From: an uncultured Ruminococcus sp.
GTDB lineage: Bacteria; Bacillota; Clostridia; Oscillospirales; Ruminococcaceae
Length of the DNA stretch: 12,833 nt
Assembly (NCBI GenBank): GCA_902783235.1
Contig: CACZQG010000200.1
Coordinates: 1 to 12,833 of the forward strand
Direction: 5' to 3'
The notes below the pieces were generated by a model that saw nothing but the letters and a program-made list of their open reading frames with translations, had not been told where the DNA came from and did not search any database. The first letter of the stretch is position 1; each line of letters opens with the position of its first letter. Made by a program: the position numbers and the translations under genes. Below, piece after piece: positions 1 through 12,310 of this stretch.

Positions 1-7
1 AGTTTTT

Positions 8-70
8 CATCAAATCTTTGATTTGACTTGAAAAACAAGTGCGTTTAGGTATTTGGATTGAAACACAAAT
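8..70 (+). repeat. Dispersed structured repeat, copy A (cut by window start)
   Basis: This stretch closely matches 9865-9956. It holds two small hairpins: CAAATC-TTT-GATTTG, and ACTTG-AAAAA-CAAGT at about 26-40. These are followed by a GTGCGTTTAGGTATTTGG block and the tail AAACACAAAT. It has one roughly 30-nt unit (25-54) where the 9865 copy has two in tandem. A further echo, TACGCCAGTATGCC at 81-94, resembles the GCCAGCAT part of the other copies. It is non-coding and lies upstream of the LysR-type gene. The element may extend left of the window. Confidence 0.7.
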
Positions 71-184: not shown

Positions 185-1117
185 ATGAATCTTTTGCATA
201 TGAAATACGCTCTTGTTATAGCCGAAACCATGTCTTTAAATAAAGCTGCCGACGAGCTTTTAGTGGGAGCACCTGCACTCAGCCGTGCTGTCAAGGAGCT
301 GGAATGTAATCTTGGGGTGATACTGTTTGAACGCAGCTCTAAGGGTATGTTTCTCACTCCCGACGGTGAGCTTTTTATACAATACGCCAAAAGGATACTA
401 AAACAGGTAGATGACGTGGAATCTATCTTCAAGGAGGGTACAACTGCAAAAAAGCAGTTTTCTATTTCCGTACCGAGAATCACCTATGTGTCATATGCAT
501 TTGCTGAGTTTTCCAAACGCATCGAACGTACTTCGGACACTGAGATATTCTATAAAGAAACAAATGACTACGGGGTAATAAACAATATTCTGAAAGAAGA
601 TTACAAGCTGGGCATATTGCGCTACAGCGAACAGCACGACAGCTATTACAAGTCAATGATGATGAAGAAGGGAATTGTGGGCGAGCTTGTCACGGAGTTT
701 TCATATGTACTCATAATGAGTAAGGACAGCCCTCTTACAAAAAAAGATAACATATCCTTCGATGATCTTAACGGTTATATTGAAATAGCTTATGCAGACC
801 CATATGTTCCGTCGCTTCCGTTTTCAGAGGTGAAGAAGGATGAACTCTCCGACCATAAGGGGTGCCGTGTATTTGTCTTTGAAAGAGCGAGTCAGTTTGA
901 ACTGTTATCCAAAAACCCCGATTCATATATGTGGGTGTCATCCATACCGGATGATCTTCTGGAACGTTACGGACTTGCACAGATAGTCTGTCAGGACAAT
1001 AAAAAACGTTATAAGGATATTCTGATACATAAAGAGGAATACTCTCTTTCCGAGCTTGATAATATGTTCGTGGAGGAGCTTGTAAAAGCTAAAAGAAAAG
1101 TATTTTCAGGTAATTAA
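185..1117 (+). CDS. LysR-family transcriptional regulator
   Basis: This 310-aa protein has the length and layout of a LysR-type regulator. The N-terminal winged helix-turn-helix lies at about residues 1-65: a first helix MNLLHMKYALVIAE, then SLNKAADELLVGAPALSRAVKELE as the recognition unit, then the family-typical block LFERSSKGMFLTPDG. The rest would be a two-lobed periplasmic-binding-protein-like effector domain. ATG 185 is preferred because AAAGGAGC at 171-178 sits at proper distance. A TTG at 152 in the same frame lies inside a hairpin and has no ribosome site. The gene runs in the same direction as adhE, 361 nt upstream, not divergently as many LysR genes do. It may control the downstream hydrogenase/ethanol operon or an unrelated target. 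The inducer cannot be read from sequence. Confidence 0.92.
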   Translation: MNLLHMKYALVIAETMSLNKAADELLVGAPALSRAVKELECNLGVILFERSSKGMFLTPDGELFIQYAKRILKQVDDVESIFKEGTTAKKQFSISVPRITYVSYAFAEFSKRIERTSDTEIFYKETNDYGVINNILKEDYKLGILRYSEQHDSYYKSMMMKKGIVGELVTEFSYVLIMSKDSPLTKKDNISFDDLNGYIEIAYADPYVPSLPFSEVKKDELSDHKGCRVFVFERASQFELLSKNPDSYMWVSSIPDDLLERYGLAQIVCQDNKKRYKDILIHKEEYSLSELDNMFVEELVKAKRKVFSGN

Positions 1118-1375: not shown

Positions 1376-1404
1376 TTCCCAAAGTGCAAAAAGTTTGTTA
1401 TAAT
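1376..1404 (+). promoter_or_regulatory. Probable sigmaA promoter of the adhE-hyd operon
   Basis: A perfect -10 hexamer TATAAT lies at 1399-1404. With 17-nt spacing the -35 position reads TTCCCA (1376-1381), matching four of six consensus bases. A weak -35 with a perfect -10 would suit a regulated promoter. The -10 lies inside the Rex-type operator at 1395-1412. The leader to the adhE start would be about 65-70 nt. Confidence 0.65.
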
Positions 1405-1412
1405 ATTAACAA
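1395..1412 (+). promoter_or_regulatory. Rex-type redox operator overlapping the -10 box
   Basis: TTGTTATAATATTAACAA has arms TTGTTA and TAACAA separated by six A/T bases. This is the architecture known for Rex operators in Firmicutes. The palindrome extends one further T/A pair on each side (1394-1413). It contains the -10 hexamer, so bound Rex would block RNA polymerase. Rex leaves DNA when the NADH/NAD+ ratio is high, which fits an operon for NADH-consuming ethanol formation and H2 production. No rex gene is in the window. Confidence 0.75.
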
Positions 1413-1478: not shown

Positions 1479-4196
1479 ATGGGAGCTGAAAACAGACAAA
1501 AAGTAGACAGCGTGGAGGCACTTGAAGCTACTCTTGAAAGGGTAAGAGCCGCACAAAAGGTGTTCGCTTCGTACACACAGGAGCAGGTAGACAACATCTT
1601 CAAGGCAGCAGCCGTTGCAGCTAATATGGCTCGTATCCCCCTTGCCAAAATGGCTGTTGAAGAAACGGGCATGGGTGTTGTAGAAGACAAGGTCATAAAG
1701 AACAACTACGCTGCCGAGTACATTTATAACGCTTACAAGGACACAAAGACCTGCGGCGTTATCGAAGAAGACAAGTCCTGCGGTATCAGGAAAGTTGCAG
1801 AACCTATCGGTGTTATAGCTGCGGTAATACCTACCACAAACCCCACATCTACCGCAATCTTTAAAACGCTTATAGCTCTCAAAACGAGAAATGCTATAAT
1901 CATCTCACCCCACCCCCGTGCCAAGGCTTCAACTATCGCTGCTGCAAAGATAGTTCTTGATGCGGCAGTGAAGGCAGGAGCACCGGAAGGCATCATTGAG
2001 TGGATCGATGTTCCCAGCCTTGACATGACAAACCTTGTCATGAAGGAAGCAGACATTATTCTTGCAACAGGCGGTCCCGGAATGGTGAAGGCAGCTTATT
2101 CAAGCGGTAAGCCGGCACTGGGCGTAGGTGCAGGAAACACCCCTGCTATCATTGACGATACAGCAGATCTTATACTCGCCGTAAGCTCAATAATCCACTC
2201 CAAGACATTTGATAACGGTATGATATGTGCTTCCGAGCAGTCTGTTATAGTTCACAAGGATGTTTACGAGGAAGTCAAGAAGGAGTTCGGCTACAGAGGC
2301 TGCTATTTCTTAAAGCCCGACGAAACCGAAAAGGTTAGAAAGACTATCCTTATCAACGGCGCACTCAATGCCAAGATAGTTGGGCAGAGTGCTTACAAGA
2401 TAGCACAGCTTGCAGGTGTGGAGGTGCCCAAGGGCTCCAAGATCCTCATCGGTGAAGTGGAAAGTGTTGAACTGAGTGAAGAGTTTGCTCACGAAAAACT
2501 CTCCCCTGTGCTTGCAATGTATAAGGCAAACGACATTCAGGATGCTTTCTCCAAAGCAGAACACCTTATTGCTGACGGCGGTTACGGTCATACATCATCT
2601 ATCTATCTTGACGTTACAACAGGTCAGGACAAACTCAAAGAGTTTGCAAGCCGCATGAAGACCTGTCGTATACTTGTAAATACCCCATCATCACACGGCG
2701 GTATCGGTGATCTTTATAACTTCAAGCTATCCCCGTCACTCACGCTGGGCTGCGGTTCATGGGGCGGCAATTCCGTAAGTGAGAACGTAGGTGTAAAGCA
2801 TCTTATAAACATTAAAACAGTAGCTGAAAGAAGGGAAAATATGTTGTGGTTCAGAGCACCCGAAAAGGTATACATAAAGAAAGGCTGTCTGCCTTTTGCG
2901 CTGGATGAACTGAAAAATGTTATGGGCAAAAAGAGAGCCTTTATCGTTACCGACAGCTTCCTTTATAATAACGGATATACAAAGCCTATCACTGACAAGC
3001 TTGATGAAATGGGCATAGTTCATGAGACATTCTTTGATGTTGCTCCCGACCCCACACTTGCCTGTGCCAAAGCTGGGGCAGAGCTTATGCGTTCATTCAA
3101 GCCCGACTGCATCATTGCTCTGGGCGGCGGTTCGGCAATGGATGCCGGCAAGATAATGTGGGTCCTTTACGAGCATCCCGAAGCTGACTTCATGGATATG
3201 GCTATGCGTTTTATAGATATACGAAAGAGAGTATATACATTCCCTAAAATGGGCGAAAAAGCATATTTCATCGCTATTCCGACCTCCGCAGGTACTGGCT
3301 CTGAGGTGACACCATTCGCAGTTATCACTGACGAACAGTCCGGTGTTAAGTATCCTCTTGCCGACTATCAGCTTCTTCCCAATATGGCTATTGTTGATAC
3401 GGACTATCACATGAGTGCTCCCAAGGGTCTTACAGCTGCATCAGGTATCGACGCTGTTTCCCACGCTCTTGAAGCCATCGCTTCCGTTATGGCTACAGAC
3501 TATACAGATGGTCTGGCAGTAAAGGCACTCCAGACAATATTTGAATATCTGCCCCGTGCATACGATAATGGACAGAATGATGTTGAAGCCCGTGAAAAAA
3601 TGGCTAACGCCGCTACAATGGCAGGTATGGCATTTGCAAATGCATTTCTTGGTGTCTGTCATTCCATGGCTCATAAGCTGGGTGCATTCCATCATATTCC
3701 TCACGGTGTGGCAAATGCCCTCATGCTTGAAGAGGTACTTAGATTCAACGCTGAGGAAGCACCTGCTAAAATGGGAACATTCTCACAGTACGATCATCCT
3801 CATACACTTGCCCGTTATGCAATGGTTGCTGATGAATTGCAGCTTGGCGGCAGCAATGATAAGGAAAAGCTCCAAAATCTTATTGATGCAGTCAATGAGC
3901 TTAAAGTTAAGGTGGGTATCAAGCCTGCAATCAAGGATTATGTTCCTGATGAAGCCGATTTCCTTGCACGGCTTGACGATATGGTGGAACAGGCATTCGA
4001 TGACCAGTGTACAGGTGCTAACCCGCGTTATCCTCTCATGAGCGAGATAAAGCAGATGTACCTGAACGCTTACTACGGGGAAAAGCACTTCACAGAAGAA
4101 AACAAGCCGACGGTCGCAGATATCCCTGCGGCAGAGGATGAACACAATTTTAAAAAGGCATATTACAAGACAAGATCGGCTGAAGCATTGCACTAA
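1479..4196 (+). CDS. adhE: Bifunctional acetaldehyde-CoA/alcohol dehydrogenase
   Basis: AdhE reduces acetyl-CoA to acetaldehyde and then to ethanol with two NADH, the main NADH sink of ethanologenic anaerobes. In this 905-aa protein the N-terminal aldehyde dehydrogenase half (about 1-440) has the nucleotide-site block GVGAGNTP (215-222) and the catalytic cysteine C250 in FDNGMICASEQ. The C-terminal iron-dependent alcohol dehydrogenase half (about 455-870) has the NAD motif GGGSAMDAGK (from 549) and metal ligands D658, H662, H728 and H742. These keep a constant +5 offset from the E. coli AdhE ligands as I remember them. All key residues are intact. It is slightly longer than the usual 870-890 aa. 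GGAGGT at 1468-1473 supports this start. It is the first gene of the operon and should be controlled by the Rex-type operator upstream. AdhE proteins typically assemble into cytoplasmic spirosome filaments. Confidence 0.97.
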   Translation: MGAENRQKVDSVEALEATLERVRAAQKVFASYTQEQVDNIFKAAAVAANMARIPLAKMAVEETGMGVVEDKVIKNNYAAEYIYNAYKDTKTCGVIEEDKSCGIRKVAEPIGVIAAVIPTTNPTSTAIFKTLIALKTRNAIIISPHPRAKASTIAAAKIVLDAAVKAGAPEGIIEWIDVPSLDMTNLVMKEADIILATGGPGMVKAAYSSGKPALGVGAGNTPAIIDDTADLILAVSSIIHSKTFDNGMICASEQSVIVHKDVYEEVKKEFGYRGCYFLKPDETEKVRKTILINGALNAKIVGQSAYKIAQLAGVEVPKGSKILIGEVESVELSEEFAHEKLSPVLAMYKANDIQDAFSKAEHLIADGGYGHTSSIYLDVTTGQDKLKEFASRMKTCRILVNTPSSHGGIGDLYNFKLSPSLTLGCGSWGGNSVSENVGVKHLINIKTVAERRENMLWFRAPEKVYIKKGCLPFALDELKNVMGKKRAFIVTDSFLYNNGYTKPITDKLDEMGIVHETFFDVAPDPTLACAKAGAELMRSFKPDCIIALGGGSAMDAGKIMWVLYEHPEADFMDMAMRFIDIRKRVYTFPKMGEKAYFIAIPTSAGTGSEVTPFAVITDEQSGVKYPLADYQLLPNMAIVDTDYHMSAPKGLTAASGIDAVSHALEAIASVMATDYTDGLAVKALQTIFEYLPRAYDNGQNDVEAREKMANAATMAGMAFANAFLGVCHSMAHKLGAFHHIPHGVANALMLEEVLRFNAEEAPAKMGTFSQYDHPHTLARYAMVADELQLGGSNDKEKLQNLIDAVNELKVKVGIKPAIKDYVPDEADFLARLDDMVEQAFDDQCTGANPRYPLMSEIKQMYLNAYYGEKHFTEENKPTVADIPAAEDEHNFKKAYYKTRSAEALH

Positions 4197-4208
4197 GGAG
4201 GTGTCGTT

Positions 4209-4958
4209 ATGAATCTGGACAGAATTATAGCAGTAAGAAACAATAAGACCGTTTACCGTGACGGCGATAAGGTGTACAAGGTTTTTGACAAAAGCTACTC
4301 AAAGGCTGATGTACTGAACGAGGCTCTCAATCAGGCTCGTGTTGAGGAAACAGGACTTAACATTCCAAAAATACTGGAAGTTACCATGACAGAGGGCAAG
4401 TGGACTATCGTTTCTGAATACATAAATGGCAAGACCCTTGCTATGCTTATTTCCGAAGATCCTGATAAGAAAGATGAATACCTTGAAATGTTCGTTGATC
4501 TGCAGCTTTCAATGCACGAAAAGACCTGTGCAGGGCTTAACAAGCTCAAAGACAAGATGAACAGAAAGATATGCGAAACTGACTTGTCAGCTACTGTCCG
4601 CTATGATCTTCACACACGTCTGGAAAGTATGCCCAAGCATAACAAGGTGTGTCATGGTGACTTTAATCCTTCAAATATAATAGTCACACCTGAGGGGACT
4701 CCCTATATCCTGGACTGGTCACACGCAACACAGGGCAATGCCTCAGCTGATGCCGCAAGAACGTATCTGCTTTTCTGGCTTTCGGGAGACATTGATGCTG
4801 CTGAGAAATACTTAGAGCTGTTCTGTAAAAAGAGCAATACTGCAAAACAGTATGTGCAGAAATGGATGCCGATAGTTGCCGCCTCGCAGACGGTAAAGGG
4901 AAATGAAAAGGAGCAGGAGTTCCTCCACACATGGATCAATGTTGTGGATTACGAATAA
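4209..4958 (+). CDS. Protein kinase-like phosphotransferase, APH/choline-kinase fold
   Basis: This 249-aa protein has the kinase core in compact form. A lysine-bearing strand VYKVFDK lies near residues 22-28, followed by a hinge region around SEYINGK. The catalytic loop HGDFNPSNIIV runs from H149, with D151 as catalytic base and N156 as metal ligand. The DFG-equivalent ILDW follows (D169). HGD and DW are the form used by aminoglycoside/choline-kinase-like families, not the HRD and DFG of Hanks kinases. It starts 12 nt after adhE with a full AAGGAGGT site (4195-4202). The corresponding gene in R. albus 7 was, as I recall, described as a serine/threonine protein kinase. A small-molecule substrate remains possible. 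Pairing in one operon with a PP2C-type phosphatase and a sensor hydrogenase favours a protein target (inference). No transmembrane segment is visible. Confidence 0.85.
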   Translation: MNLDRIIAVRNNKTVYRDGDKVYKVFDKSYSKADVLNEALNQARVEETGLNIPKILEVTMTEGKWTIVSEYINGKTLAMLISEDPDKKDEYLEMFVDLQLSMHEKTCAGLNKLKDKMNRKICETDLSATVRYDLHTRLESMPKHNKVCHGDFNPSNIIVTPEGTPYILDWSHATQGNASADAARTYLLFWLSGDIDAAEKYLELFCKKSNTAKQYVQKWMPIVAASQTVKGNEKEQEFLHTWINVVDYE

Positions 4959-4971
4959 GGAGGTTGACTAT

Positions 4972-5214
4972 ATGAAAGTAACTGTGTGTATCGGCTCTTC
5001 CTGCCATATAAAAGGCTCACGACAAGTGGTTGAACAGCTCCAGTACCTTATAAACGAAAACGATCTGGGAGATAAGGCAGAGCTTTCGGGAACATTCTGC
5101 ATGGGAAAATGCCAGCAGGGTGTCTGTGTTACGGTGGATGATGAATTCTTCTCGGTTACTCCCGAAAATGTAAAGGAATTCTTTGAAGAAAACATACGCT
5201 CCGGGGTGAACTGA
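4972..5214 (+). CDS. Thioredoxin-like [2Fe-2S] ferredoxin (first of tandem pair)
   Basis: This 80-aa protein is a single thioredoxin-fold [2Fe-2S] domain, the type fused in NuoE and HydC-like subunits. Cluster ligands are C6 and C11 (CIGSSC) and C43 and C47 (CMGKC), giving CX4C...CX3C. A fifth cysteine, C52, is unique to this copy. ATG 4972 is chosen because AAGGAGGT at 4957-4964 precedes it. A longer frame upstream would overlap the kinase gene. It would carry electrons in the cytoplasm, plausibly to or from one of the two hydrogenases downstream. It is paralogous to the next gene. Confidence 0.88.
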   Translation: MKVTVCIGSSCHIKGSRQVVEQLQYLINENDLGDKAELSGTFCMGKCQQGVCVTVDDEFFSVTPENVKEFFEENIRSGVN

Positions 5215-5215
5215 T

Positions 5216-5479
5216 ATGATAGTTCAGATATGCGTAGGTTCTTCATGTCACCTGAAGGGCTCGGAAAAGATAGTCGGACTTTTCGGAAAAGCGATAGAGG
5301 AACATAAACTGGAAAATGAGATAACCTTAGCGGGAAGCTTCTGTACAGGCAAATGCAACCGTATTGGTGTTACCGTTTCAGTGGATGATGATGTTCATAC
5401 AGGCATCACGCCCGAAAATTTCAGTGATTTTTTCCGTGAAAATGTACTTGATGTCCTGAAAAAAGAAAGGGAGAGATAA
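5216..5479 (+). CDS. Thioredoxin-like [2Fe-2S] ferredoxin (second of tandem pair)
   Basis: This 87-aa paralogue of the preceding gene keeps cluster cysteines at identical positions: C6, C11, C43 and C47 in CVGSSC and CTGKC. It lacks the extra C52 and ends in a charged tail, KKERER. It starts one base after the previous stop, with a GGGGTG ribosome site inside the upstream gene. Its own TAA abuts the ATG of hydS, so the three genes are probably translationally coupled. Differences between the copies are concentrated outside the ligand loops, which suggests different partners, for example HydS versus HydA2 (inference). Confidence 0.88.
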   Translation: MIVQICVGSSCHLKGSEKIVGLFGKAIEEHKLENEITLAGSFCTGKCNRIGVTVSVDDDVHTGITPENFSDFFRENVLDVLKKERER

Positions 5480-7153
5480 ATGGAGTGTCTGACACTAAAA
5501 AAATCCAACTGCAAAAACTGCTATAAGTGCATTCGCCATTGTCCTGTGAAATCAATTCGTTTTTCCGGGAATCAGGCTTATATAATCGGAAACGAATGCG
5601 TTATGTGCGGTCAATGCTTCGTTGTCTGTCCCCAGAACGCTAAACAGATAGTTGATGAGACGGAAAAGGTAAAGGTGCTTCTTCAGAGCGGAGACCCTGT
5701 TGTAGTAAGTCTTGCTCCTTCTTTTATTGCAAATTATGACGGTGTAGGCATAGACGCCATGAGAAAAGCCATAAAAGAGCTGGGATTTTATGATGTGGAA
5801 GAAACAGCCATTGGAGCCACTATCATAAAACGTGAATATGACCGTATATGCCGTGAGGAAGAACGTGACATTATTATAACCTCCTGCTGTCACTCGGTCA
5901 ATCTTCTTATACAGAAACATTTTCCCAAGCTGCTGCCGTACCTGGCGGATGTGCTGTCACCCATGCAGGCACACTGTAAAAGTATAAAGGAGCGTATTCC
6001 AAATGCTAAAACCGTATTTATAGGTCCATGCGTTGCCAAAAAGGATGAAGCTGAGCACTACGAGGGCTTCGTGGATGCGGTACTTACTTTTGATGAGCTG
6101 ACAAACTGGTTCAAGGCCGAGAATGTGATCCCTGAGGCGAAGCCGGACAGCAATGGAAACAGTAAGGCACGTTTTTTTCCTGTTACCGGAGGGATACTCA
6201 AAACTATGGAGCTGAACGTTCCACGGTTCAACTATATAGCTGTGGATGGAATAGAAAACTGTATAGCCTCTCTGAAGGAGATCGAAAACGGTAATCTGCA
6301 TAACTGTTTTATAGAAATGTCTGCTTGTACGGGAAGCTGTGTGGGAGGACCTGTAATGGAAAAATTCCACCGTTCTCCCATAAAAGACCGCATTTCCGTT
6401 ATAAATTATGCAGGAAGCAATGATTTTCCTGTGGATCAGCCTGACAGTACACAGCTTCACAAGCCCTTTGAAATAATAAGACAGAAGTCCTCTGACCCCA
6501 GTGAGTCAGAGATTCGTGAAACGCTTCATCAAATGGGCAAAACAAAGCCATCGGACGAGCTTAACTGCGGTTCATGCGGCTACAATACCTGTCGTGAAAA
6601 AGCTATAGCTATTTTGCGCGGCAAGGCGGAAATATCCATGTGTCTGCCCTTCCTGAAGGAAAAAGCGGAAAACCTGTCCGATATAATCTCACGCAACACG
6701 CCCAACGGACTTATAGTCCTGAATGAAAAGCTGGAGGTACAGCAGATAAATAAGGCTGCACTTAAAATAATGAATCTCCGCACTCCGTCGGATATACTTG
6801 GAGATCAGGTGGTAAGAGTTCTCGATCCGAAGGATTTCCTGGCGGTACTTTCAAATGGAGCTGCCCTTCATGGTAAGCATGAGTACCTGGCAGAATATGG
6901 AAAATATGTTGAAAAGACTATCATCTATGACAGGGAGTATAAGCTTATCGTCGGCATCCTACGTGATGTTACCGAGGAGGAGACACAGCGTGAGAAAAAA
7001 GAAAATATAAGTCGTCAGACTGTTGAGATAGCCGACAAGGTGGTTGACAAGCAGATGAGGATAGTCCAGGAGATAGCCTCACTGCTGGGTGAAACTGCCG
7101 CAGAGACTAAAATTGCTCTCACTAAGCTAAAGGAGTCGATAGGCAATGAATAA
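5480..7153 (+). CDS. hydS: Putative H2-sensing [FeFe]-hydrogenase with PAS domain (HydS type)
   Basis: This 557-aa protein has five parts. (1) Two [4Fe-4S] motifs: C11/C14/C17/C21 and C40/C43/C46/C50. (2) The H-cluster domain: L1 TSCCHSV (T134-V140), L2 GPCVAKK (C184), L3 EMSACTGSC (C283, C287). The four predicted H-cluster ligands are C137, C184, C283 and C287. (3) A further [4Fe-4S] motif, C363-X2-C366-X4-C371-X16-C388. (4) A PAS domain at about 406-495. (5) A helical, probably coiled-coil tail. L1 departs from TSCCPGW and L3 has Ser281 where catalytic enzymes have Met, as in sensory group C. No kinase or cyclase output domain is fused, so signalling must pass to a partner. The overlapping phosphatase gene is the obvious candidate. 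It is cytoplasmic, with no signal peptide. Confidence 0.93.
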   Translation: MECLTLKKSNCKNCYKCIRHCPVKSIRFSGNQAYIIGNECVMCGQCFVVCPQNAKQIVDETEKVKVLLQSGDPVVVSLAPSFIANYDGVGIDAMRKAIKELGFYDVEETAIGATIIKREYDRICREEERDIIITSCCHSVNLLIQKHFPKLLPYLADVLSPMQAHCKSIKERIPNAKTVFIGPCVAKKDEAEHYEGFVDAVLTFDELTNWFKAENVIPEAKPDSNGNSKARFFPVTGGILKTMELNVPRFNYIAVDGIENCIASLKEIENGNLHNCFIEMSACTGSCVGGPVMEKFHRSPIKDRISVINYAGSNDFPVDQPDSTQLHKPFEIIRQKSSDPSESEIRETLHQMGKTKPSDELNCGSCGYNTCREKAIAILRGKAEISMCLPFLKEKAENLSDIISRNTPNGLIVLNEKLEVQQINKAALKIMNLRTPSDILGDQVVRVLDPKDFLAVLSNGAALHGKHEYLAEYGKYVEKTIIYDREYKLIVGILRDVTEEETQREKKENISRQTVEIADKVVDKQMRIVQEIASLLGETAAETKIALTKLKESIGNE

Positions 7154-8318
7154 TCTGTGTGCTGATATAGGCTACAAGAGTATCAATCACTTTGGTGAAC
7201 AGCTTTGCGGAGATCATGTTGACATAATTGAGCAGGATGAGAACTCAACGGTGATAGTTCTTGCGGACGGACTTGGAAGCGGAGTTAAGGCGAGTATTCT
7301 TTCCACACTCACTTCCAAGATAATCTCTACTATGATGGCAGAGGGACTAAAGCTTGAGGACTGCGTGTCCACCATTGCCGCAACGCTGCCCATTTGCTCC
7401 GTGAGAGGTGTTGCTTATTCCACCTTTACTATACTGCACCTTATCGACAACAAAACTGTTGAGATAATCCAGTATGACAACCCTGATGTGATCTTCCTGC
7501 GTGATAACGAAATATACGATTATCCCAAGCAGGAACTGAATATTGACGGAAAAAATGTGCTGAAATCTATCATATCCCTCCGTGAAAATGATATTTTGGT
7601 CGCAATGAGCGACGGATGTCCCCATGCAGGTATCGGTCTGGCTTTCAATTTCGGCTGGAAATGGGATGATATAGCAGAATTCATGAAGGGGATATCTGTT
7701 GCGGGATATACTGCTAAAACTCTTGCCACTATGCTCGTGGATCAGTGCGATAAGGAGTACGGTCATAAACCGGGTGATGATGCAACAGCCTGTGTAATAA
7801 AGATACGCAGACGTGAGCCTGTAAACATACTTTTCGGTCCTCCACGAAACCGTGATGACTGCAACAGAATGATGTCCCTCTTCTTTTCAAAAGAGGGTAA
7901 GCATATTGTCTGCGGCGGAACTACCTCTTCCATTGCCGCAGCATACCTGGGTAAGCCTGTAAGGGCGAGTCTCTGCTTTGAAAGTGGAGAGATTCCACCC
8001 ATAGCTGAAATAGAGGGTGTAGATTTAGTGACAGAAGGTGTTATCACCATAAACAAGGTCATAGAATACGCCCGTGATGTTCTGGATAAAAATGAATTCT
8101 ATGAGACATGGAGCTTTAAAAGGGATGGTGCGTCCCTTATATGCCGTCTTCTTTTCGAGGAAGCTACGGATATAAACTTTTACGTTGGAAGAGCCGTTAA
8201 CCCCGCACATCAGAATCCTGATCTGCCAATAACTTTCAATATCAAAATGAATCTGGTAGAAGAGCTCTCATCATGCCTCAAACAAATGGGAAAGCGTATA
8301 AAAGTAAGTTATTTTTGA
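7146..8318 (+). CDS. SpoIIE/PP2C-family protein phosphatase with extra C-terminal domain
   Basis: This 390-aa protein is predicted to be a metal-dependent Ser/Thr phosphatase. Acidic metal-site motifs of the family are present: GDH (D23), LADGLGSG (D41), MSDG (D156) and GDDATAC (D211, D212). The catalytic domain thus ends near residue 220. About 170 residues follow that I do not recognise as any named domain. They include a glycine/serine-rich strand-turn HIVCGGTTSSIAAAYLG and end in KVSYF. The start overlaps the hydS stop by 8 nt, with AAGGAG at 7130-7135, so the two proteins are probably made together. That supports HydS as its regulator (inference). Its likely counter-enzyme is the kinase encoded at 4209-4958. 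SpoIIE-type enzymes often act on STAS anti-sigma antagonists, but none is encoded here. Confidence 0.9.
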   Translation: MNNLCADIGYKSINHFGEQLCGDHVDIIEQDENSTVIVLADGLGSGVKASILSTLTSKIISTMMAEGLKLEDCVSTIAATLPICSVRGVAYSTFTILHLIDNKTVEIIQYDNPDVIFLRDNEIYDYPKQELNIDGKNVLKSIISLRENDILVAMSDGCPHAGIGLAFNFGWKWDDIAEFMKGISVAGYTAKTLATMLVDQCDKEYGHKPGDDATACVIKIRRREPVNILFGPPRNRDDCNRMMSLFFSKEGKHIVCGGTTSSIAAAYLGKPVRASLCFESGEIPPIAEIEGVDLVTEGVITINKVIEYARDVLDKNEFYETWSFKRDGASLICRLLFEEATDINFYVGRAVNPAHQNPDLPITFNIKMNLVEELSSCLKQMGKRIKVSYF

Positions 8319-8329
8319 GAGGAGAAATC

Positions 8330-9754
8330 ATGCAAAAGTTTGATACCAAAGTACAGCATCTTAAATATAAAGTTCTCCGTGAAGTCGCAAGGCTTGCATG
8401 GAACGATCAGCTTCTTGAAAATGTTCTTGATATACCAAAGACCATAGTTCCCGGAAAGACTCCCACTATGCGCTGCTGCGTTTACAAGGAAAGAGCAATA
8501 CTCGGTGAGCGGGTAAAGCTTGCAATGGGTGGTAACAAGGAAAACCCAAACATAATCGAGGTCATCGAAACTGCCTGCGACGAATGTCCTATGGGCGGAT
8601 ATGAGGTGACTAACGCCTGCCGTGGCTGTCTTGCCCACAGGTGCGAGGATGCCTGTAGATTCGGAGCTATTTCCTTCGATCAGGATCATGTGGCACATAT
8701 CGACAAGACAAAGTGCCGTGAATGCGGAGCTTGCTCCAGAGTTTGCCCCTATACTGCTATTATCAGCAGAAAACGCCCCTGTGAAAATGCCTGTAAGATC
8801 AAGGCCATCAGCATGAATGAGAGCAAAGCTGCCGCCATAGATAACGATAAATGTATTTCCTGCGGTGCCTGTGTTTATCAATGTCCGTTTGGCGCATTTA
8901 TGGATAAGTCCTATATGCTGGACGTTATCGACATTATAAAAAAGAGCGAGGAAAACAAAAAATACAAGGTCTATGCCGTTGTAGCTCCCTCTATTTCAAG
9001 CCAGTTCAGGTATGCAAAGCTCGGACAGGTTATAACGGGACTTAAAGAGCTGGGCTTTCATACAGTTGTAGAAGCTGCACTGGGAGCTGACATGGTAGCT
9101 GATGCCGAAAGCCGTGAGCTTGTGGAAAAGGGCTTCCTGACAAGCTCATGCTGCCCGGCATTTGTAAGCTATATTGAGAAAAATCACCCTGATATGGTGC
9201 CTCTTATATCTCATAATCTATCACCTATGGCAGCGATCGGCCGATACCTTAAAGAACACGAACAGGGCTGTAAGGTGGTATTTATCGGACCATGTACAGC
9301 TAAGAAAGCAGAGGTTCAGAAAGAAAAAGTAAGGCCTTATGTGGATGTAGCAATGACATTTGAGGAGCTGCAGGCACTGTTCGATTCAAAGGATATAGAT
9401 ATAACAACACTTTCCGAAGGCGTTCTTGACAATGCGTCCTATTTTGGAAGGATATTTGCCCGTGTGGGCGGTCTTGCAGATGCGGTTGCGCAGGCTCTCA
9501 AGGAGCATAATGAAACGGAATTTGAGCTTAAAGCTGTATCATGTGACGGTATAGTGCAGTGCAAGGCGGCTCTCATAAAAAAGAGTAAAAACCTGAGTGA
9601 TTTCAATTTCATTGAAGGCATGGCGTGTGTAGGCGGATGCATCGGCGGCGCAGGATGTCTTACTCACGGTGAGAAAAATAAATCAGAAGTAGATAAATAC
9701 GGCAGAGAAGCACTGGAAAAGACCATAAGCGATGCTGTTTCTGTTTTGAAATGA
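8330..9754 (+). CDS. hydA2: Ferredoxin-dependent [FeFe]-hydrogenase, catalytic (HydA2 type)
   Basis: This 474-aa protein should reduce protons to H2 with reduced ferredoxin. The N-terminal third is rich in Fe-S cysteines: C83/C86, C97/C100/C105/C109, C129/C132/C135/C139, C151/C155 and C175/C178/C181/C185. The last ferredoxin-type motif leads into the H-cluster domain: L1 SSCCPAF (C274, C275), L2 GPCTAKK (C322), L3 EGMACVGGC (C433, C437). GPC instead of MPC and TSSCCPAF instead of TSCCPGW point to a group B-like enzyme rather than the classic CpI type. ATG 8330 follows GAGAGGAG (8317-8324). An in-frame ATG at 8273 would overlap the phosphatase gene by 46 nt and is not favoured. It is the last gene of the operon. 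The maturases HydEFG are not in this window. Confidence 0.93.
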   Translation: MQKFDTKVQHLKYKVLREVARLAWNDQLLENVLDIPKTIVPGKTPTMRCCVYKERAILGERVKLAMGGNKENPNIIEVIETACDECPMGGYEVTNACRGCLAHRCEDACRFGAISFDQDHVAHIDKTKCRECGACSRVCPYTAIISRKRPCENACKIKAISMNESKAAAIDNDKCISCGACVYQCPFGAFMDKSYMLDVIDIIKKSEENKKYKVYAVVAPSISSQFRYAKLGQVITGLKELGFHTVVEAALGADMVADAESRELVEKGFLTSSCCPAFVSYIEKNHPDMVPLISHNLSPMAAIGRYLKEHEQGCKVVFIGPCTAKKAEVQKEKVRPYVDVAMTFEELQALFDSKDIDITTLSEGVLDNASYFGRIFARVGGLADAVAQALKEHNETEFELKAVSCDGIVQCKAALIKKSKNLSDFNFIEGMACVGGCIGGAGCLTHGEKNKSEVDKYGREALEKTISDAVSVLK

Positions 9755-9768
9755 CAAGAATAATTCAC

Positions 9769-9956
9769 GGGTAGTATTGTTTCCCAAAAATTAAACATTG
9801 CCAACAATACTTGCCCGACAGAAAATTTCTCTGCGTCAGAAAGCCTGACAATATGCCAGCATTTCACCAAATCTTTGATTTGACTTGAAAAATAAGTACG
9901 TTCAGGTATTTGACTAAAAAACAAGTACGTTCAGGTATTCGGACAGAAACACAAAT
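9769..9956 (+). repeat. Dispersed structured repeat, longest copy
   Basis: This non-coding block follows hydA2. It begins with GGGTAGTATTGTT (9769-9781), which pairs with AACAATACTTGCCC (9803-9816), leaving a two-base asymmetry. Next, 9792-9834 matches the inverted copy at 1242-1284. Then 9830-9862 matches the window end (12801-12833) at 27 of 33 positions, and 9865-9956 matches copy A at 8-70. A roughly 30-nt unit containing AAGTACGTTCAGGTATT is tandemly duplicated (9882-9911 and 9912-9940). This copy therefore links the three partial copies into one element. Confidence 0.75.
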
Positions 9957-10032: not shown

Positions 10033-10086
10033 CCTAAAAGGAACACTCCCGACCTTCGCAATGAAGATCGGGAGTGTTCTTTTAGG
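10033..10086. terminator. Strong hairpin terminator between convergent genes
   Basis: CCTAAAAG plus GAACACTCCCGA pairs with TCGGGAGTGTTC plus TTTTAGG, giving a stem of about 19 bp with one bulged G and an inner CTTC/GAAG pair. T-rich tracts follow on both strands. It lies between hydA2 (plus strand) and the secreted-protein gene (minus strand, ending at 10109), so it probably terminates both. Confidence 0.85.
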
Positions 10087-10108: not shown

Positions 10109-12310
10109 TTAATTTACTTTCACGTCAACCTTTGTTCCCCATGTCTTGTTTCCTTCCTTATCAAATGCAACCACAAAAACTTTGTAATCTGACTTGGGAA
10201 CATACTTGAATGTATAGCTTGTATCGGTAGTCTTGCTGCCGTAGTAGGTCTTGCCGTTTACTACCTTGCCCACCTTGTAGGCAACTGCGCCCTGTGCGGC
10301 ATTCCATGAGATAGTACCGTCCTTTACAGTCACACTGTTTACCGTACCAAGTTTGTTTTCCACCTTGACCTGCAAATGCTCGCTCCATGCAGTGCCGTAG
10401 TCATTTTTAGCGGCAACATAGATCTCGTAGTCCTGATTGGGCAGATTCTTGAACTTATAGCTGGTGTCCGTTACCCAACCGCTGTAATATGCAGTTCCGC
10501 CGTATTTTTTGAATACCTTGTACTGCGCTGCGTTGTCAGCATTGTCCCATGTGACCGTGCCGTCCTCGGAAATTGCAACGTTGGTTGGAGCTGAGGGCTT
10601 GTTATCTGTTGCCGGTTCAACAGCGTCAAGGTCTATGAATGTGTAGCCGTTCGCTTTCGCAAACTCCTCCGCAGCCGAACCTGTGTAACCGTAAATTGTC
10701 CCAAAGGCTGTGCAGTGGCTGAATGCGGTCTTGTTTATGTTTGTGACGGTGGCAGGGATCGTGAGGCTTTCAAGTGCCGTGCAGCCCCAGAATGCGTTTG
10801 CACCAATCTCCGTTATGCTGTCGGGGATCTTTACTTCTGTAAGGGATTTGCAGGAGTTGAATGCGTTTTCCCCGATCCTTGTCACGGGGACTGTTTTGCT
10901 GTCACCCTCGACCTCACTTGGTATCTCAACTTTTTCAGCGTTCACGTCACATTCGTAAACTTCAACGTAGTCATCGTAGTAGTTGTGGAAGGTGAAGGGG
11001 GGCTGCTCAATTGTGTTGTATGCAACGGAGCTGGGTCTCTTGCCTATAGAAACTGCTATGGGGTAATTAGATACAAACCAAGCACCATTATTCTTTTTTA
11101 CACGGTAATATACATTATAATCGCCCACTTCTTTTCCTGTAGCAGAGGATTTCCATGTACTTTTATCATCCGTGCTGTATTCAAATGTCAAACCGCTTGT
11201 CGTATCCGCTGTTACAAGCTCCTGATCCTGACCGTTTTCATGAAGGTCGGTTTTGGCTTTGGGGGCGGTGTATTCGGGTATAGACCAGTTTCCTTCTGTA
11301 ATTTCTGAACTTGTATTAGTACTTGTATCAGTGAATTCCACCTTTATAGCTAACAGCCTTGCTTCACCTTTGATCTGAACAATTGCATAGGTTGCAATAT
11401 TATCAAGAGCATCACTACCATTGCCCTGTAATGTATATATTTTTACACCGGGCGTATTATCTATCAATCTAAACGCTTTTTCACTGTCACCGCCACCATG
11501 TCCAACTGCTATCTGTCCCCAACCGTCATTGGGTATTTCATTCATTTCGACCAGAGCTTCAACTTTTTTAATATTATCAGGACTTATATTTAATTCGGAA
11601 CCTATATTATAATTTATATCAGACTCAACAGTGGTGCCGTTGTATATATGTAACTTAGCTGGTATGTTTTTTACATATATCGTGGATGAAGAAGTTAAAT
11701 TATCTAATGTAATACTGCTATTATTATTAATAATAGTATTGCTAACCGTGGATTCATTATCGCCTATATATTTATTCTCTCCGGATGTATTTGTAAGTGT
11801 AATGCTACTATCTGTCTTTGCTGTTACTTCAACATCGTTGATATAATCGTATTGAATTACAGATGAAAATTCCACACTTTCACCGTGAAAGTTAATTTGA
11901 GTGAAGATATATCTATCACTTGATGTACCACTGCCTCCTGATATCCTAAAACCTCCGGGAACCGCCCAGTCACCTTTATAAATTTGAGTTCCAGCAAAAT
12001 TTAATATATCATTAGAACCATCAGTGGTATGAGAGTAGGTTACCTCTTCAGATGTTAAGGTTATGTCGTTATTAAGGATTCTAACATAAATAGGGTTACT
12101 CGCACTTGCTCCGGAGAAAGTCATTGTTGTATTTGAACCTCGACCGGGCGTTTTAACTACTTGACCTACCATAGTGCCTTCCGCACTAACCGTCAGATCA
12201 TACCAATTATCATCATACTTAAACAGCTCACCACTGAAACCAACAGCCGACAGGGACAAAATCGTCGCCGTGACAGCCCCGATAATTCTTTTAAATTTCT
12301 TTGTTTTCAT
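10109..12310 (-). CDS. Secreted BspA-type leucine-rich-repeat protein with two fibronectin-III-like modules
   Basis: This 733-aa protein starts with a signal peptide: basic MKTKKFKR, then a hydrophobic run to about residue 25. Residues 40-340 form a Ser/Thr/Asn-rich, probably all-beta region I do not recognise. Residues about 345-425 resemble the bacterial Ig-like module with ELVTADTTSGLTFEYSTDD and YNVYYRVKKNNG. Residues 474-563 hold BspA-type repeats (RIGENAFNSCKSLTEVKIPDSI and two more). Two fibronectin-III-like repeats end the protein (571-652 and 653-733), sharing motifs such as TDTSYKFK and TDTSYTFK. No LPXTG signal, dockerin or catalytic motif is seen. It is probably extracellular or cell-associated, with a possible adhesion or carbohydrate-surface role. 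GGAGG at 12322-12326 precedes the start. It is transcribed towards hydA2 and is functionally unconnected to it. Confidence 0.88.
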   Translation of the reverse strand: MKTKKFKRIIGAVTATILSLSAVGFSGELFKYDDNWYDLTVSAEGTMVGQVVKTPGRGSNTTMTFSGASASNPIYVRILNNDITLTSEEVTYSHTTDGSNDILNFAGTQIYKGDWAVPGGFRISGGSGTSSDRYIFTQINFHGESVEFSSVIQYDYINDVEVTAKTDSSITLTNTSGENKYIGDNESTVSNTIINNNSSITLDNLTSSSTIYVKNIPAKLHIYNGTTVESDINYNIGSELNISPDNIKKVEALVEMNEIPNDGWGQIAVGHGGGDSEKAFRLIDNTPGVKIYTLQGNGSDALDNIATYAIVQIKGEARLLAIKVEFTDTSTNTSSEITEGNWSIPEYTAPKAKTDLHENGQDQELVTADTTSGLTFEYSTDDKSTWKSSATGKEVGDYNVYYRVKKNNGAWFVSNYPIAVSIGKRPSSVAYNTIEQPPFTFHNYYDDYVEVYECDVNAEKVEIPSEVEGDSKTVPVTRIGENAFNSCKSLTEVKIPDSITEIGANAFWGCTALESLTIPATVTNINKTAFSHCTAFGTIYGYTGSAAEEFAKANGYTFIDLDAVEPATDNKPSAPTNVAISEDGTVTWDNADNAAQYKVFKKYGGTAYYSGWVTDTSYKFKNLPNQDYEIYVAAKNDYGTAWSEHLQVKVENKLGTVNSVTVKDGTISWNAAQGAVAYKVGKVVNGKTYYGSKTTDTSYTFKYVPKSDYKVFVVAFDKEGNKTWGTKVDVKVN

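What the first reader, a model, noticed from the sequence alone, without database searches (positions are those of the whole stretch)
1479..9754. One operon joining an H2 sensor, a kinase, a phosphatase, an H2-producing enzyme and an ethanol enzyme
Seven genes with gaps of 0-13 nt or an 8-nt overlap combine both electron outlets (AdhE, HydA2) with a probable sensor (HydS) and both halves of a phosphorylation switch. This is not a standard two-component or sigma-factor module: HydS has no output domain and no target protein is encoded. A similar unit has been reported in Ruminococcus albus 7, and related sensor-hydrogenase/SpoIIE loci occur, as I recall, in Thermoanaerobacterium. The signalling mechanism and the phosphorylated target are, to my knowledge, undefined. 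The target could even be AdhE or a hydrogenase, giving post-translational control.
Basis: partly seen in the sequence, partly recalled or inferred. Interest (0 to 1): 0.75.

Follow-up and report, generated by a model that had tools for sequence, protein, structure and literature searches.

The report
Two-cassette hydrogen and ethanol operon
A fermenting bacterium carries one gene cluster for its two electron outlets, ethanol and hydrogen; the cluster is already known from a rumen bacterium, but comparison suggests that it joins two separate modules, so its kinase probably belongs to the ethanol enzyme and not to the hydrogen sensor's phosphatase.

Summary
In detail: seven genes run from 1479 to 9754 with gaps of 0-13 nt and one 8-nt overlap, with the domains described. 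The cluster is known: Ruminococcus albus 7 has it on pRUMAL01 in the same order, and a 111-fold expression change is published (PMC6776011).

The single kinase-phosphatase switch is not supported. HydS is directly before the phosphatase in 159 of 162 loci, the other three being contig ends. The APH-fold kinase tracks AdhE: 73 of 76 kinase-bearing genomes have AdhE, and 41 of the 76 lack this phosphatase. The operon joins two cassettes: adhE-kinase and ferredoxin-HydS-phosphatase-hydrogenase.

Missed before: an exact Rex operator on the -10 box (1395-1412), a LysR gene that recurs with this operon form, and a conserved C-terminal HydS helix. The phosphatase also has a conserved second domain without a convincing Pfam or NCBIfam match. 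No STAS protein is in the window, and eight of 120 phosphatase-bearing genomes show none. The target remains unknown.

The parts
185..1117 (+). LysR-type regulator; recurs beside this form of the operon
   Evidence: PF00126 57.1 bits over 26.6; LysR relative in 22 of 32 kinase/AdhE loci with room upstream, 5 of 27 without room, and 2 of 103 loci without kinase or AdhE
1376..1404 (+). promoter TTCCCA-17-TATAAT with TG before the second hexamer
   Evidence: 10 of 12 matches; a similar ATTCCC-spacer-TGTTAtAAT layout seen by eye in relatives
1395..1412 (+). Rex operator TTGTTATAATATTAACAA, overlapping the -10 box
   Evidence: exact match; operator-bearing loci
1479..4196 (+). adhE, bifunctional acetaldehyde-CoA/alcohol dehydrogenase, 905 aa
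4209..4958 (+). APH-fold phosphotransferase (APHk), 249 aa; K24, E38, H149, D151, N156, D169 conserved
   Evidence: linkage to AdhE
4972..5214 (+). thioredoxin-like [2Fe-2S] protein 1, 80 aa
   Evidence: PF01257
5216..5479 (+). thioredoxin-like [2Fe-2S] protein 2, 87 aa
   Evidence: PF01257
5480..7153 (+). HydS, group C-type sensory [FeFe] hydrogenase, 557 aa
7019..7129 (+). conserved C-terminal helix of HydS (residues 514-550), proposed output element
   Evidence: 22 residues at 85% or more identity in 152 sequences; mean column identity 0.76 (510-552) against 0.55 for PAS; that it is a helix is read from the sequence
7146..8318 (+). SpoIIE/PP2C-type phosphatase, 390 aa
   Evidence: PF07228; acidic residues invariant in 35 sequences
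7821..8315 (+). C-terminal domain of the phosphatase (residues 226-390), conserved, unnamed
   Evidence: no convincing Pfam or NCBIfam match among 16 members
8330..9754 (+). HydA2, monomeric [FeFe] hydrogenase; start at Met20 of the open frame 8273-9754
   Evidence: TIGR04105; start inferred from the family match
10041..10079 (.). hairpin with 17 pairs between convergent genes, likely terminator
   Evidence: one search lists it on the - strand; on the + strand TTTT follows it too

Best explanation
This is the R. albus 7-type fermentation-switch operon, and it is a composite of two cassettes. Cassette 1 is adhE plus an APH-fold kinase, transcribed from a promoter whose -10 box lies in a Rex operator, with a LysR regulator beside it. 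Cassette 2 is ferredoxin-like protein(s), HydS, a PP2C phosphatase and a hydrogenase. Proposed working: when H2 is high, NADH cannot be reoxidised through the bifurcating hydrogenase, Rex leaves the operator and the operon is induced, opening the ethanol and ferredoxin-H2 outlets. HydS reads H2 or ferredoxin potential at its H-cluster and FeS clusters, passes it through PAS to its C-terminal helix, and that helix controls the co-translated phosphatase in trans. The phosphatase then adjusts an outlet protein or regulator after translation. The kinase acts in the AdhE branch, on AdhE or on a small molecule tied to it. Shown here: gene order, linkage statistics, operator, conserved helix and domain. 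Inferred: contact between HydS and phosphatase, direction of the signal, and both substrates.
For: HydS directly upstream of the phosphatase in 159 of 162 loci, the remainder being contig ends; the genes overlap or abut in 138 of 159. The kinase tracks AdhE more than the phosphatase: 73 of 76 against 35 of 76 genomes; AdhE is the gene directly upstream of the kinase in 64 of 79 distinct loci and directly downstream in 2 more. Rex operator exact in the window and on the -10 box; upstream of operon genes 30 of 180 regions carry a site against 6.2 expected; of 24 adhE-headed loci 14 carry a rex gene without the operator, 9 the operator without rex, 1 neither, 0 both. The genome encodes a Rex with both Pfam domains. 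HydS helix. Published genetics fit a sensor that restrains the phosphatase: in T. saccharolyticum loss of hfsB raises ethanol, loss of hfsC or hfsD does not, and NADH-ADH but not NADH-ALDH activity rises (PMC5707799).
Against: I know of no experiment in this organism. Operator matches with at most one mismatch are not enriched in the own genome: 10 sites against 12 for the backwards control. The loci are related, so the P values are too small. In T. saccharolyticum adhE transcript rose two- to threefold in hfsA or hfsB deletions, so part of the effect is transcriptional, and high-ethanol strains had more rex transcript, the opposite of simple Rex relief (PMC5707799). [quoted passage not shown] No AdhE residue separates 47 kinase-linked AdhEs plus the window's from 20 unlinked ones, so no phosphosite is indicated. 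The phosphatase is patchy near home: 13 of 41 relatives have it. PAS is below its Pfam cut-off.
Confidence: 0.6

Rival explanations
1. One phosphorylation switch: the operon's kinase phosphorylates and the PP2C phosphatase dephosphorylates the same target under HydS control (first reader; close to Zheng 2014 as retold in PMC5707799).
For: Both genes sit in one operon in R. albus 7 and in 55 of 162 phosphatase loci. Five of 79 kinase loci have HydS downstream without AdhE counted directly upstream, though in one of them (L273) a cut AdhE is there. Over all 341 genomes kinase and phosphatase are associated (P 1e-4).
Against: 41 of 76 kinase genomes lack the phosphatase (36 of these 41 are at least 90% complete by the table) and 59 of 94 phosphatase genomes lack the kinase; within AdhE-bearing genomes the two are not significantly associated (32 of 73 against 23 of 77, P 0.09). 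The T. saccharolyticum operon studied by genetics is hfsABCD, with no kinase named in the sections read.
Confidence: 0.12
2. Partner switching of the SpoIIE/RsbU type: the phosphatase acts on a STAS-domain protein encoded elsewhere, releasing a sigma factor or other partner.
For: The catalytic domain is SpoIIE-type, the own genome has six STAS places, and 112 of the 120 phosphatase genomes have at least one.
Against: None of the nine window proteins scanned hits a STAS or HATPase family. Of 120 phosphatase-bearing genomes, 8 show no PF01740 STAS (four of the eight by absence from the list of matches), and none of these 8 has PF13466 either; 5 of the 8 are at least 90% complete. One of the 8 (G072) has only a 28% identical phosphatase. 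HATPase_c_2 is present in 7 of the 8, so a kinase of that type is not excluded.
Confidence: 0.12
3. The H2 response is wholly transcriptional through Rex and LysR; HydS and phosphatase play a minor part in it.
For: Rex operator and LysR linkage. The published 111-fold change is in transcript (PMC6776011).
Against: HydS-phosphatase linkage is kept across the phylum with and without adhE, and hfsB deletion raised ethanol in all five species tested (PMC5707799).
Confidence: 0.15
4. Sub-question: the APH-fold kinase phosphorylates a small molecule, not a protein.
For: Its family neighbours are mostly APH, choline and thiamine kinases.
Against: Tight pairing with AdhE, and in three loci with HydA2 directly downstream (L278, L282 with AdhE, L328 without), looks like control of enzymes. 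Besides AdhE, the ferredoxins, HydS and LysR, no gene cluster recurs beside it in more than six of the 79 loci. RIO1 also matches above its cut-off (33.8 against 22), a family known (recalled) for protein kinases.
Confidence: 0.45

Closest known systems
R. albus 7 pRUMAL01 cluster RUMAL_RS17345-RS17385 (LysR, Rex, adhE, phosphotransferase, two [2Fe-2S] proteins, HydS, SpoIIE phosphatase, HydA2)
   Same: Same seven genes in the same order, LysR upstream, same 8-nt HydS-phosphatase overlap; phosphatase 74% identical.
   Different: R. albus 7 has a rex gene between LysR and adhE and no Rex operator with two or fewer mismatches within the cluster. The window has no rex there but an exact operator. 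R. albus 7 has it on a plasmid; the window's replicon is unknown.
hfsABCD of Thermoanaerobacterium saccharolyticum
   Same: HfsB corresponds to HydS, HfsC has homology with serine phosphatases, HfsD is like HydA2 (PMC11837493 passages, PMC5707799 sections; sequences not compared here).
   Different: No adhE and no kinase in the operon as described there.
SpoIIE/RsbU-type PP2C phosphatases
   Same: SpoIIE domain; best solved chains are 5mqh and SpoIIE 3t91.
   Different: No N-terminal regulatory domain, an extra C-terminal domain of about 165 residues, and a hydrogenase-like sensor encoded next to it.
Sensory group C hydrogenase TmHydS
   Same: H-cluster, C-terminal FeS cluster, PAS (PMC10055695, PMC13104023, passages).
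   Different: TmHydS has Ala at the proton-transfer Cys position (PMC10055695); the window keeps Cys (TSCC, residues 134-137), as do at least 92 of 152 sequences in a sample biased to relatives.

Membership tests
R. albus 7 HydS/HydA2 operon | adhE-phosphotransferase-Fd-Fd-HydS-SpoIIE-HydA2 in this order | tested here: met
R. albus 7 HydS/HydA2 operon | rex gene within the cluster | tested here: not met
   no frame of 60 aa or more lies on the + strand in the 361 nt between LysR and adhE; the one Rex found lies on another contig of the draft genome
R. albus 7 HydS/HydA2 operon | expression falls when H2 is removed | not testable with these tools
   published for R. albus 7 (PMC6776011)
Group C sensory [FeFe] hydrogenase | H-cluster motifs, N-terminal 4Fe-4S pair, C-terminal FeS cluster | tested here: met
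   PF02906, PF00037, PF04060; TSCC, GPCVAKK, ACTGSCVGG motifs
Group C sensory [FeFe] hydrogenase | PAS domain | tested here: inconclusive
   PF13426 at 408-499, 22.5 bits, below the cut-off of 27
Group C sensory [FeFe] hydrogenase | senses H2 | not testable with these tools
   also called putative in the literature (PMC8924675, passage)
SpoIIE/PP2C phosphatase | SpoIIE domain with its acidic residues | tested here: met
   invariant D23, D41, D156, D211, D212 in 35 sequences; that these bind metal is recalled from the family
RsbU/V/W partner switching | STAS protein and HATPase kinase beside the phosphatase | tested here: not met
   nine window proteins scanned; neighbours in other loci were clustered, not scanned
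RsbU/V/W partner switching | STAS target somewhere in the genome | tested here: inconclusive
   present in the own genome, none found in 8 of 120 phosphatase genomes
Ser/Thr protein kinase (Hanks type) | Pkinase match above cut-off | tested here: not met
   24.0 bits against 31.7
APH-fold phosphotransferase | PF01636 above cut-off and conserved catalytic residues | tested here: met
   the roles of the residues are recalled from the family
Rex regulon | operator at the promoter and a Rex in the genome | tested here: met
Rex regulon | Rex binds and represses | not testable with these tools
   needs a binding assay

The most novel reading that the evidence does not exclude
HydS and its phosphatase form a phosphorylation pathway of their own kind: a hydrogenase used as sensor drives, through a conserved C-terminal helix, a PP2C phosphatase with an undescribed second ligand- or partner-binding domain and a non-STAS target. 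Separately, the APH-fold kinase is a regulator or modifier of AdhE found across Clostridia. The operon joins the two so that ethanol and H2 outlets are tuned after translation as well as by Rex.
Probability: 0.35. Interest if true: 0.72.

Novelty: new member of a known kind. Interest (0 to 1): 0.5.

Why it matters
How fermenters choose between H2, acetate and ethanol bears on rumen methane and on biofuel yields, and the route from the hfs/HydS mutations to their effect is called unknown in a 2026 paper (PMC13277313, passage). Separating kinase from phosphatase changes which experiments to do first: look for the phosphatase's target without assuming that kinase, and test the kinase on AdhE. The HydS helix and the unnamed phosphatase domain are concrete places to cut.

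Tried and rejected
By sequence, 16 members gave only single-member matches above E 0.02 in Pfam and NCBIfam, and the profile of the whole protein gave a weak PDB hit to a phosphoheptose isomerase over residues of this domain (3trj, E 0.057), which I do not rely on. A search with that domain alone returned 1567 proteins; the 120 listed look to me like pieces of the same phosphatase (several are named partial), with one isolated Pfam label.

Phosphosite on AdhE: 47 kinase-linked AdhEs plus the window's against 20 unlinked gave no position with 90% or more identity in the first group and 40% or less in the second.

Genome-wide Rex operators in the own assembly: no enrichment at one mismatch (10 sites against 12 in the control); the only other exact match lies inside a frame that reads like a chemoreceptor (not family-tested).

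Own-genome STAS proteins as targets: six places found and their contigs fetched, but I did not analyse them further and nothing tied them to this operon.

Literature: Zheng 2014 (PMC4248817) is not held and was not read; whether it mentions Rex or a link of kinase and AdhE is unknown to me. Searches for an AdhE-linked kinase listed nothing; the four papers do not describe it in the passages or sections that I saw. The library lacks most subscription journals.
Full report
What is there. The window is G000 contig C200, in a draft assembly of 2.12 Mb, 415 contigs, 88.1% complete. HydA2 matches NCBIfam's group B1 model; Greening 2019 calls the R. albus hydrogenase group A1, a difference in naming that I did not resolve.

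Known already. A tblastn of the phosphatase against plasmids found three records: R. albus 7 pRUMAL01 (74% identity), Monoglobus and Acetoanaerobium. The R. albus record shows LysR, Rex, adhE, phosphotransferase, two [2Fe-2S] proteins, HydS, SpoIIE phosphatase and HydA2. Greening 2019 (PMC6776011, passages) reports a 111-fold drop of an eight-gene cluster of this kind in co-culture with an H2 user and proposes sensing by HydS with a Ser/Thr phosphatase that may modify regulators; the listing counts no occurrence of Rex in it. [quoted passage not shown]

Sensor and phosphatase belong together. I compared 162 loci. The first 82 are the window, its second copy L025 and 80 regions chosen from the matches in 398 genomes of the phylum (120 genomes with a match at E 1e-20) and 41 relatives (13 with a match); not all matches were fetched. 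HydS is directly upstream in 159; the other three start at a contig end. The genes overlap or abut in 138 of 159, with median -4 nt and -8 nt in the two sets, and a thioredoxin-like ferredoxin directly precedes HydS in 132 of 159. A hydrogenase of HydA2 type is found downstream in 88 of 162, HydABC-type subunits downstream in 29 and upstream in 10, and none in 35, contig ends included.

HydS has a candidate output element. In 152 HydS sequences, residues 514-550 hold 22 positions at 85% identity or more, around KQMRxVQEIASLLGETxAETKxALxKLK. Mean column identity is 0.76 there (510-552), 0.55 in PAS, 0.62 in the H-cluster domain and 0.78 in the FeS motif. A short motif from it is in 136 of 155 HydS proteins over 500 aa; of the 19 others, 18 have a variant and one (L164) looks frameshifted. 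One HydS not next to the phosphatase, but in the same locus (L147), also has it. That the helix touches the phosphatase is my inference, by analogy to helices that switch PP2C domains in SpoIIE relatives (recalled).

The phosphatase has a second domain. Residues 226-390 carry invariant motifs (GPP, CGGT, TEG, NxAxQNP), yet none of 16 members matches a Pfam or NCBIfam family convincingly. This is the least understood part.

The kinase goes with AdhE. Three searches over 341 genomes of the class, taken to be the same draw because the handles agree, gave 76 with the kinase (E 1e-20), 94 with the phosphatase (E 1e-30) and 150 with AdhE (E 1e-200, at most two candidates scored per genome). One of the 76 (G479) is only 34% identical. 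Kinase and AdhE co-occur in 73 of 76 (Fisher P 5e-28); kinase and phosphatase in 35 of 76 (P 1e-4); within AdhE genomes kinase and phosphatase are not significantly linked (32 of 73 against 23 of 77, P 0.09). Of 90 fetched kinase loci 11 were duplicates; of the 79 distinct ones AdhE is directly upstream in 64, directly downstream in two, and HydS is within the next three genes in 21 (eight loci end too soon to tell). Vertical descent of an AdhE clade inflates these figures, but reversed order (L320, L321) and HydS placed on the other side (L316) show that the pair has survived rearrangement. In the phosphatase sample the kinase is present in 55 of 162 loci (7 of 82 and 48 of 80). Catalytic-type residues are conserved in 50 kinases (five of 55 were dropped for length).

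Rex and LysR. The exact operator at 1395-1412 covers the -10 box. In the 162 loci, 30 of 180 upstream regions of operon genes carry a site with at most one mismatch in ten bases, against 6.2 expected from 26 hits in 759 other genes; for adhE 9 of 12. With the full 12-base operator and one mismatch, 17 of 139 operon starts away from contig ends have a site. Of 24 adhE-headed loci, 14 have a rex gene and no site in the 350 nt before adhE, 9 a site and no rex, one neither, none both. In the rex-bearing loci those 350 nt are largely rex coding sequence; upstream of rex itself 2 of 22 have a site, upstream of LysR 0 of 13. By eye, many rex-bearing operons share a box like TTATATCGATA...ATACCGATATAA before ATTCCC and TATAAT, possibly the LysR site. 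Outside this operon, adhE is also often headed by a Rex site (27 of 47 kinase-linked, 15 of 18 unlinked), so Rex control of adhE is ordinary.

No obligatory STAS partner. Of 120 phosphatase genomes in the phylum draw, 8 show no PF01740 (my count from the lists, four by absence from the list of matches) and all 8 lack PF13466; seven have HATPase_c_2. The other 112 do have a STAS protein.

How it works. Rex and LysR set the amount; HydS and phosphatase, I propose, set the activity. In T. saccharolyticum, loss of hfsA or hfsB raises ethanol to at least 3 mol per mol cellobiose, loss of hfsC or hfsD does not, and deleting the whole operon does not; NADH-ADH rises without NADH-ALDH, and adhE transcript rises two- to threefold. 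The simplest reading is that HydS restrains the phosphatase and that the dephosphorylated target favours H2 cycling and ethanol. This rests on another species and is contested by its own rex data and by reports of hfsB/C disruption.

Verdict. Real and functionally coherent, already reported as a unit, with a corrected partition, a missed operator and two protein elements that I could not match to a described family.

Noticed in passing
G000 contig C298 (L025 1-6675): A second copy of the operon (adhE cut by the contig end, through hydA2), 86% identical in DNA, 93-97% in the four proteins compared, most changes at third codon positions, followed by a PDDEXK_2 transposase gene and a helicase-domain frame. 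Paralogue or a second organism in the bin.
   Followed up: partly
window 5-70 with 9862-9956; 1242-1284 with 9792-9834: Short repeats on both sides of the operon, the second pair inverted; copies of parts of them occur on other contigs of the genome.
   Followed up: partly
L222 (Methanocorpusculum label), L227 (Alistipes label): The operon appears on short contigs of genomes labelled as an archaeon and a Bacteroidota; binning error or transfer.
   Followed up: no
L238 4706-5308 and relatives: A divergent Rex (30% identical to the window genome's Rex) sits inside the operon in R. albus 7 and relatives, mostly without the usual Rex operator; it may read a different DNA site.
   Followed up: partly
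window 5480-7153, residues 134-137: HydS keeps the proton-transfer cysteine that most sensory hydrogenases lack (17% have it according to PMC10055695, passage).
   Followed up: partly
L278, L282, L328, L358: HydA2 directly follows the kinase (L278, L282 with AdhE before it; L328 without AdhE) or AdhE alone (L358), with no phosphatase seen in the short stretches fetched.
   Followed up: no
window 10109-12310, - strand: BspA-type leucine-rich-repeat protein gene, convergent with the operon.
   Followed up: no
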